Below are positions 32,618 to 34,003 of a stretch of DNA of 34,003 nt, piece after piece. The notes under the pieces were generated by a model, which worked only from the letters and a program-made list of their open reading frames with translations, was not told the origin of the DNA and ran no database searches. The stretch covers positions 1-34,003 of the forward strand of contig JANXRG010000058.1 in the NCBI GenBank assembly GCA_025353105.1, written 5' to 3'. Both the position numbers and the translations under genes were made by a program. This DNA is from Verrucomicrobiota bacterium (lineage in GTDB: Bacteria; Verrucomicrobiota; Verrucomicrobiia; Chthoniobacterales; SZAS-18). Positions within the stretch are counted from its first letter, which is position 1, and every line of letters starts with the position of its first letter.

Positions 32618-32694
32618 GAAGAACGGGGGAAGAACGGGGGGGAAGAACGGGGTCACACCGTGACATACGGGAAGAACGGGGTCACACCGTGACA
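32618..32694. repeat. Left-end tandem repeats with two REP-like palindromes
   Basis: Two copies of GAAGAACGGGGG (32618-32629 and 32629-32640, sharing one base) are followed by two 24-nt units at 32642-32665 and 32671-32694. Each 24-nt unit is GAAGAACGGG plus the palindrome GTCACACCGTGAC (5-bp stem GTCAC/GTGAC, loop ACC). The units are separated by a 5-nt spacer. The transposase TGA stop (32684-32682) lies inside the second palindrome. Confidence 0.85.
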
Positions 32695-33770
32695 GATGAC
32701 ATTACTGAGCATTTCTTGCTCCATTGATCGAGCCGGCGCTTCAGACTGGGGTCCTCCTGCCGTTTTGCGTTCAATCGCGCAATGGCCACGCTCACTGCCG
32801 ACGGGTCCACCCCACCCGCCCATTGGGCCAGCTGCCTCAAAGTCAGGCTGGTGTGCTCGCGCGCCAGCCAGAGGATCTCGTCGCGCCCTCCATCGCCCCG
32901 GCGTTCTCCAAACTCCGCCAGCCGTTGACCCCTCTCGGTTTCCACCAGGCGCACGAGGTCCTCCAGCGAGCGACCCTGCCGGCGCGCCCGCTCGGCTTCC
33001 ACCCGCACCGCTGCCGGCTCCCCGTGCAACAGCTTGCGCACCCGCTGGCCAAAGACCGCGCGGCCAATCCACCAGCCGGAACGCACCCGTTCCCAGTACG
33101 TCTCCGGCAGGTCCTCTCGCACCGATTCCTCCACCCAAGCTACGTAGGCCCGCCGACACTTGGCTTCATCCAGCTTCCGGTGGCCTTTACCAGTGTGTCG
33201 AAACGCTTCCAGGCTCGATTCCATCTCCAGCCAATTTGGAAGGACTTGTTCGCCGCGATACACCCGCCAAGAACTCCACGGATACTCCCGCAACACTCTC
33301 AAGCGCTCCCTAATCGCCCGCGCGTCGCGTGGCCGCTCGGGTCCGCGTGCCCGGTCTTCACGCTGGGTCCGGCTTAGCCCCAGACCCCGCACCCGCACCG
33401 GGTTTAAGTGCACGTACCGGCTGACCTCCAGCCCCGCGTCATCCCAGTCCACGATGACCGCCTTGAACCGGCCCTGCCACAGCGGACCCACCCGGCGGTA
33501 CCGGTGATTGAAATACGCCGCGTAATGCTGATTGAGCCGCTGCATCGAGCGGCTGAGGTTGGCCTCGGTGGTCTGCAGCAGAAGGTGAAAATGATTGCCC
33601 ATCAGGACCCAGGCGTGCACGCGCCAACCGAACACGGTGGCCACCCGTCCCAGGATTTCGATGAACTTCTGATGGTCCGCTTGATCGCGAAAGACCGCGC
33701 GGCGCTCGATGCCACGGCAAATGATGTGGTAGTGCCCGCCGGCCATTTCCACTCGTAACGGTCGCGCCAT
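32682..33770 (-). CDS. REP-associated tyrosine transposase (RAYT, TnpA_REP) with DnaA-like C-terminal domain
   Basis: This Y1 HUH transposase related to IS200/IS605 TnpA cuts and joins single-stranded REP hairpins through a tyrosine. The HUH motif is NHFHLL with His60 and His62, and the catalytic Tyr119 lies in SRYVHLNPVR. The RAYT-typical start MARPLRVEMAGGHYHIICRG and the PLWQGRFKA segment are both present. At 362 residues it is longer than the common RAYT of 150-220 residues, because a C-terminal part (about 285-345) with SLTLRQLAQWAGGVDPSAVS resembles the DnaA box-binding helix-turn-helix. This type is sometimes mislabelled DnaA. An AAGGAGG lies about 21 nt before the ATG, further than usual. 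All catalytic residues are intact, so it may be active. Confidence 0.9.
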   Translation of the reverse strand: MARPLRVEMAGGHYHIICRGIERRAVFRDQADHQKFIEILGRVATVFGWRVHAWVLMGNHFHLLLQTTEANLSRSMQRLNQHYAAYFNHRYRRVGPLWQGRFKAVIVDWDDAGLEVSRYVHLNPVRVRGLGLSRTQREDRARGPERPRDARAIRERLRVLREYPWSSWRVYRGEQVLPNWLEMESSLEAFRHTGKGHRKLDEAKCRRAYVAWVEESVREDLPETYWERVRSGWWIGRAVFGQRVRKLLHGEPAAVRVEAERARRQGRSLEDLVRLVETERGQRLAEFGERRGDGGRDEILWLAREHTSLTLRQLAQWAGGVDPSAVSVAIARLNAKRQEDPSLKRRLDQWSKKCSVMSSVTV

Positions 33771-33807
33771 GCCCAGATCTCAAGCAGACCTTCCTCCTTA
33801 TGTCAAG

Positions 33808-33855
33808 TGTCACGGTGTGACCCTAGTTCCCCTGCCCTAGTAGTTCCCCTGCCCT
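33808..33855. repeat. Right-end palindrome and 17-bp tandem repeat
   Basis: TGTCACGGTGTGACC (33808-33822) is the reverse complement of the left-end palindrome. It is followed at once by two copies of TAGTTCCCCTGCCCT (33824-33838 and 33841-33855) with a period of 17 bp. The palindrome sits about 38 nt upstream of the RAYT start codon, so it could also affect the transposase's own expression. Confidence 0.8.
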
Positions 33856-34003
33856 CCGTGAGATCTCCGGATACGTGATTGTGATGCCGCAGACTTTCGC
33901 AAAGGGCGTCAGAGTGTGAACCTGGCGGCGAATTGGGCTCATGATGTCCTCGGCGCGGATTCCCCGAATCAGCAAGGCATCGGCGATGAGCGAGCGATGG
34001 CAG
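33823..34003 (-). CDS. 3' end of an unrecognised ORF, cut by the window edge
   Basis: On the minus strand a frame is open from the window edge to a TAG at 33825-33823. It encodes about 59 residues, including CHRSLIADALLIRGIRAEDI and PFAKVCGITITYPEISRR, followed by tail residues that come from the 17-bp tandem repeat. Plus-strand frames over the same bases have stops. The composition looks protein-like but I cannot name a family. The last residues being repeat-encoded suggests that the RAYT-associated repeats have replaced the original 3' end of this gene. Confidence 0.45.
   Translation of the reverse strand, partial: CHRSLIADALLIRGIRAEDIMSPIRRQVHTLTPFAKVCGITITYPEISRRAGELLGQGN

What the first reader, a model, noticed from the sequence alone, without database searches (positions are those of the whole stretch)
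32618..33855. RAYT bracketed by inverted REP-like palindromes, with its stop codon inside one
The same 13-bp palindrome (GTCAC-ACC-GTGAC) occurs twice at the 3' end of the transposase gene and once in opposite orientation just upstream of its start. The TGA stop is read from within a palindrome. HUH and Tyr residues are intact. RAYTs are domesticated REP transposases thought to maintain REP families; here the cognate palindromes are directly visible, including one in the leader, which could allow self-regulation.
Basis: partly seen in the sequence, partly recalled or inferred. Interest (0 to 1): 0.6.

Follow-up and report, generated by a model that had tools for sequence, protein, structure and literature searches.

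The report
Self-bracketing transposase with stuttering ends
The gene is a member of a known, little-studied class of single-strand-cutting transposases flanked by mirror-image ends; comparing it with relatives from many phyla shows that the DNA just outside these ends is often copied in short, aborted repeats, an apparently unreported footprint that hints at how such enzymes cut and copy DNA.

Summary
In detail: GTCACACCGTGAC lies at 32652, 32681 (+) and 33809 (-), and the stop codon lies inside the right-hand repeat. The gene (32682-33770, -) encodes an intact Y1 HUH transposase fused to a DnaA domain IV-like DNA-binding domain. By tested features it is a TIRYT in a "TIRtron" (TnpA_Y1 subclass 2.1), not a classical RAYT: there is no GTAG foot, the conserved feature is a terminal inverted repeat starting GGGGTCA rather than a palindrome, and the family is small (12 places in the genome; the 9 outside the window lie at six sites, mostly as inverted pairs, one an internally deleted copy of the gene).

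What goes beyond the finding is the GAAGAACGGGG x4 and TAGTTCCCCTGCCC x2 outside the ends. In 77 related elements, 35 of 150 ends carry short tandem duplications of about 5-12 outer nucleotides plus a variable stretch of the inverted repeat, against 3/150 on the inner side, 1.7% in random windows and 2/41 at GTAG REPs. The 5' breakpoint is nearly constant, the 3' breakpoint varies. I read this as repeated nicking about 8 nt outside the repeat, short copying and religation; this mechanism is inferred, not shown.

The parts
32682..33770 (-). CDS, 362 aa, Y1 HUH transposase (TIRYT, TnpA_Y1 subclass 2.1 type)
   Evidence: Pfam Y1_Tnp 6.6e-15; AlphaFold model pLDDT 86.5 matches TnpA_REP 4er8 Z 15.4 and DnaA domain IV 1j1v Z 15.1
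33585..33596 (-). HUH motif NHFH (residues 59-62)
   Evidence: H60 and H62 invariant in 38 sequences
33399..33416 (-). catalytic Tyr motif YVHLNP (Tyr119)
   Evidence: Y119 and N123 invariant in 38 sequences
32703..32972 (-). C-terminal DnaA domain IV-like DNA-binding domain (residues 267-356)
   Evidence: 1j1v Z 15.1, rmsd 1.4 A over 90 residues; family profile hit to DnaA 2e-10
32678..32702 (+). right terminal inverted repeat GGGGTCACACCGTGACAGATGACAT; overlaps the last codons and the stop of the CDS
32682..32684 (-). stop codon TGA formed by the invariant GGGGTCA (TGACCCC) of the repeat
33800..33823 (-). left terminal inverted repeat GGGTCACACCGTGACACTTGACAT, 29 nt before the ATG
   Evidence: score 19 against shuffles at most 9
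32649..32665 (+). partial (aborted) repeat copy, 17 nt, outside the right end
32618..32652 (+). three outer GAAGAACGGGG units (32618-32628, 32629-32639, 32642-32652); the fourth, proximal one is 32671-32681
   Evidence: anchor copies
33824..33854 (-). two copies of GGGCAGGGGAACTA outside the left end (33824-33837, 33841-33854)

Best explanation
The segment 32618-33854 is a TIRtron: a TIRYT gene (Y1 HUH nickase plus DnaA domain IV-like DNA-binding domain) between cognate terminal inverted repeats beginning GGGGTCA, which also make short non-autonomous copies in the genome. Shown: the anatomy, the further copies, an internally deleted derivative, the same ends beside homologous genes across phyla, and outer-flank tandem duplications with a nearly fixed 5' breakpoint (about 8 nt outside GGGG) and a variable 3' breakpoint. 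Inferred mechanism: the C-terminal domain and the HUH domain bind the repeat; Tyr119 nicks about 8 nt 5' of GGGG; the freed 3'-OH is extended by a host polymerase across the outer flank and part of the repeat; the enzyme often rejoins the displaced 5' end early, leaving [flank + partial repeat] in tandem. Completed copying or transfer of the displaced strand would give new copies.
For: Family and fold. Copies: 8 exact palindromes (reversed control 0), 12 extended places, inverted pairs at C85, C105, C115 and C49, and gene start and end remnants inside the C85 pair. Terminal repeats beside 77 of 93 analysable homologues. Outer duplications 35/150 ends, inner side 3/150, random windows 1.7%, Fisher 1e-8 and 3e-19; the flank+GGGG anchor recurs upstream at 27/141 ends, 0.4 expected; outer part mean 7.9 nt, SD 2.3, repeat part 6-24 nt, over 100 nt in L151 and L165. 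Exact junctions show about 1.0 nt of homology on average (my count; about 0.7 expected by chance). GTAG REPs in a Rhodanobacter genome that also carries a stuttering TIRYT: 2/41. In genome G104 the outer sequence goes with the body subfamily (permutation p 0.0085), and in 10/74 elements at least 5 nt of it is shared inverted by both ends (0.43 expected). HUH enzymes can use the 3'-OH for priming or strand transfer (PMC8266576).
Against: No nicking, binding or transposition was observed. No exact empty site was recovered, so the true ends of the mobile unit are not proven. Three quarters of ends show no duplication. E. coli TnpA_REP cleaves at C|T on either side of REP; no dinucleotide rule was found here. 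Sharing of outer sequence among copies could reflect target preference (flanks are A- and purine-rich).
Confidence: 0.5

Rival explanations
1. Classical RAYT in a REPtron: the palindromes are REPs bound as single-strand hairpins.
For: TnpA_REP fold, palindrome with 5-bp stem in this element (z -1.8), inverted-pair copies resembling REPINs.
Against: No GTAG foot; repeats of 72 relatives do not fold (median z -0.16); 12 places rather than hundreds; NCBIfam RAYT model below its cutoff (64 of 80 bits); extra DnaA-like domain.
Confidence: 0.15
2. The outer duplications are host replication slippage at a G-run or weak hairpin and say nothing about the enzyme.
For: All units abut a G-run; the window repeat can fold; slippage makes tandem duplications.
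Against: Inner side of the same repeats 3/150; hairpins are not a family property; GTAG REPs, which are hairpins, show 2/41; little junction homology; other GGGG[TA][CG] sites in the same loci 3%.
Confidence: 0.25
3. Elements insert preferentially into pre-existing short tandem repeats.
For: Outer flanks look like tandem repeats and have a composition bias.
Against: The repeated units contain element sequence (GGGGTCA up to 17 nt or more), which a pre-existing host repeat would not.
Confidence: 0.05
4. A decayed relic whose ends were shuffled by ordinary recombination among scattered copies.
For: Only one intact cognate gene in the genome; the C85 derivative is degenerate (75% identity); related genome G005 has the left neighbour gene but no element there.
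Against: Open reading frame and catalytic residues intact; perfect palindromes at five other places; each end has its own flank.
Confidence: 0.1

Closest known systems
TIRYT / TIRtron (Di Nocera et al. 2013, PMC3733652)
   Same: Y1 transposase flanked by terminal inverted repeats with GGGGWSAS (here GGGGTCAC), moderately abundant repeat families as single and paired copies, repeats overlapping gene ends
   Different: Outer-flank stuttering and its fixed 5' breakpoint are not described in the text I could read (figures and supplements not held)
TnpA_Y1 subclass 2.1 (Quentin et al. 2018, PMC6006769), given there as Bertels group 1
   Same: NH[YF]H, Y[IV]HLNP, long protein, DnaA_C-like C-terminal domain, no REP
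   Different: 362 aa against a median of 238; Quentin et al. left the link to TIRs open, here terminal repeats are found beside most members tested
RAYT / REPtron (Nunvar 2010, PMC2817692; E. coli TnpA_REP)
   Same: Catalytic fold, inverted cognate repeats on both sides
   Different: No GTAG, palindrome not conserved across homologues, low copy number
REPINs (Bertels and Rainey 2011, PMC3116915)
   Same: Short inverted-pair copies; tandem clusters including flanking sequence are reported there
   Different: Here the duplications are partial copies of a repeat end, anchored about 8 nt outside it
IS200/IS605
   Same: Y1 HUH chemistry
   Different: No match above cutoff (24 of 55 bits), symmetric inverted ends, extra domain

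Membership tests
TIRYT/TIRtron | Y1 HUH transposase related to RAYTs | tested here: met
TIRYT/TIRtron | gene flanked by terminal inverted repeats unrelated to GTAG REPs | tested here: met
   24-nt repeat, score 19 against at most 9 in shuffles, no GTAG
TIRYT/TIRtron | GGGGWSAS motif in the repeats | tested here: met
   GGGGTCAC at the right end; left end AGGGTCAC, one mismatch
TnpA_Y1 subclass 2.1 | NHVH/NH[YF]H and Y[IV]HLNP motifs | tested here: met
   NHFH and YVHLNP
TnpA_Y1 subclass 2.1 | C-terminal helix-turn-helix such as Bac_DnaA_C | tested here: met
   1j1v Z 15.1, rmsd 1.4 A over 90 residues; family profile to DnaA 2e-10
RAYT/REPtron | REP with 5' GTAG/GTGG foot | tested here: not met
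   GGGG/AGGG instead
RAYT/REPtron | palindromic, hairpin-forming repeat | tested here: inconclusive
   window z -1.8, but family median -0.16
RAYT/REPtron | REP family usually above 100 copies | tested here: not met
   12 places with up to 3 mismatches in 3.72 Mb
RAYT/REPtron | passes NCBIfam NF047646 REP_Tyr_transpos cutoff | tested here: not met
   64.1 bits, cutoff 80
REPIN/MITE (for the other copies) | short inverted pairs without intact transposase | tested here: met
   C85, C105, C115 and C49 pairs 110-200 bp apart
IS200/IS605 | passes the family model | tested here: not met
   24.1 bits, cutoff 55
any active transposon | nicking, strand transfer or transposition | not testable with these tools
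   needs an experiment

The most novel reading that the evidence does not exclude
TIRYTs work by nick, short copy and religation: they nick DNA at a measured distance of about 8 nt outside their inverted repeat, prime synthesis, and frequently rejoin early, so that bacterial genomes hold a readable record of aborted single-strand transposition events; the outer ~8 nt travels with the element as a variable passenger and can be copied inverted to the other end.
Probability: 0.35. Interest if true: 0.7.

Novelty: new member of a known kind. Interest (0 to 1): 0.45.

Why it matters
TIRYTs form the second largest subclass of TnpA_Y1 proteins, in 15% of strains surveyed (PMC6006769), yet no mechanism was given for them in the papers I could read. 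A reproducible end footprint with a fixed 5' and a variable 3' breakpoint predicts where the enzyme cuts and that it primes synthesis, which a one-tube nicking assay can test.

Tried and rejected
Empty-site search in Pseudoalteromonas, in the family of G104 (one relative with both neighbour genes but a diverged intergenic stretch) and around the window (G005 has the left gene, no element) gave no clean empty site. Plasmids hold only 10 relatives at E 1e-20, none useful for an empty site. A strict dinucleotide-specific double cleavage was considered for the duplications and rejected because many junctions share no base. Literature search with the repeat GGGGTCAGGTC gave only unrelated papers. 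Hairpin recognition as the family rule was rejected. Supplementary files and figures of the TIRYT papers could not be read.

Full report
Observation. The 362-aa minus-strand ORF (32682-33770) ends inside the right-hand copy: its TGA is the complement of TCA in GGGGTCA at 32678-32684. Extending the comparison between the two ends shows that the shared unit is a 24-nt inverted repeat, GGGTCACACCGTGACANNTGACAT, of which the palindrome is only a part.

What the protein is. Pfam finds Y1_Tnp (6.6e-15); NCBIfam's RAYT and IS200 models both fall below their cutoffs. An AlphaFold model from the window protein and 37 relatives (mean pLDDT 86.5) superposes on E. coli TnpA_REP (4er8, Z 15.4, 155 residues, 2.2 A) in its N-terminal part and on DnaA domain IV (1j1v, Z 15.1, 90 residues, 1.4 A) in residues 267-356. 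His60, His62 and Tyr119 are invariant. NHFH, YVHLNP and the DnaA-like tail are the marks of TnpA_Y1 subclass 2.1, which Quentin et al. relate to the TIRYTs of Di Nocera et al., whose repeats carry GGGGWSAS; GGGGTCAC fits.

Copies in the genome. The exact palindrome occurs 8 times, 5 outside the window, reversed control 0. The extended motif occurs at 12 places, mostly inverted pairs 110-200 bp apart. The pair at C85 encloses the first codons and the last 46 codons of a relative of the gene: an internally deleted derivative. This is a small, mobile-looking family, not a REP family of hundreds. At C10 a copy supplies the stop codon of a 131-aa ORF. The related genome G005 has the gene left of the element but not the element.

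Relatives. A scan of one genome per species returned 80 homologues in many phyla; with the relatives, 93 could be analysed and 77 have a significant inverted repeat, nearly all starting GGGGTCA, while the inner part differs from element to element but is the same at both ends of one element. The stop codon overlaps the right repeat in 57 of 77; the TGACCC of the right repeat is in the gene's frame in 45 of 66 cases, 22 expected (p 8e-9 if independent). So the stop inside the repeat is a family habit. The repeats do not fold better than shuffled sequence, so the palindrome is a peculiarity of this element and its near relatives.

Stuttering ends. The window shows four GAAGAACGGGG units at the right end, one carrying a partial 17-nt copy of the repeat, and two GGGCAGGGGAACTA units at the left. 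The same happens across the family: 35 of 150 outer ends carry a tandem duplication (score 12 or more), against 3 of 150 inner sides and 13 of 760 random windows. Each unit is a short outer stretch, different for every element, followed by a variable length of the repeat. The outer part is 4-15 nt, mean 7.9, SD 2.3; the repeat part 6-24 nt, most often 6-7; some units run over 100 nt into the element (L151, L165). Within one end, several units share the same start and differ in their end (L135: six units). Canonical GTAG REPs in the same Rhodanobacter genome as L135 show 2 of 41.

Does the outer stretch move with the element? In genome G104, short hairpin copies at independent sites share it within a body subfamily (GACGCATT at two sites, CAGATTTT and variants at about six; permutation p 0.0085), and both ends often carry it in inverted form; in 10 of 74 autonomous elements at least 5 nt are shared this way, 0.43 expected. 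Either it is a passenger or the enzyme prefers such targets; the data do not decide.

Mechanism. The simplest account of a fixed 5' and a variable 3' breakpoint, duplication only on the side 5' of GGGG, and little junction homology is: nick about 8 nt outside the repeat, extend the 3'-OH, religate the displaced 5' end early. HUH chemistry allows both priming and strand joining (PMC8266576). The chemistry here is inferred. Slippage by host polymerases is the main rival.

Verdict.

Noticed in passing
G000:C10:7214-7237 (L055 2215-2238): A lone repeat copy supplies the stop codon (..GVTP*) of a 131-aa ORF just downstream of a tyrosine recombinase gene.
   Followed up: partly
L161-L175 (genome G104): About 18 near-perfect hairpin copies (stems of about 28 bp) of a TIRYT repeat, many with direct and inverted duplications of an 8-nt outer sequence; a good single-genome data set for the mechanism.
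   Followed up: partly
L135 and G102: A Rhodanobacter genome carries both canonical GTAG REPs (87 copies of one 12-mer) and a stuttering TIRYT element with six partial copies at one end.
   Followed up: partly
window 33800-33806 and relatives L063-L074: The inner end of the repeat reads TTGACA, the sigma-70 -35 hexamer, at a nearly constant 24-30 nt before the ATG in the relatives from the window's order; no -10 box was evident.
   Followed up: no
window 33854-34003: The last 150 bases of the contig match G000:C62:238-387 at 99%, so the contig probably continues there or ends in a repeat.
   Followed up: no
G000:C106:19810-20159, C16, C28, C29, C35, C39: At least six further Y1 transposase genes or fragments in the same genome; the C106 one is 66% identical and cut by the contig end.
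   Followed up: no
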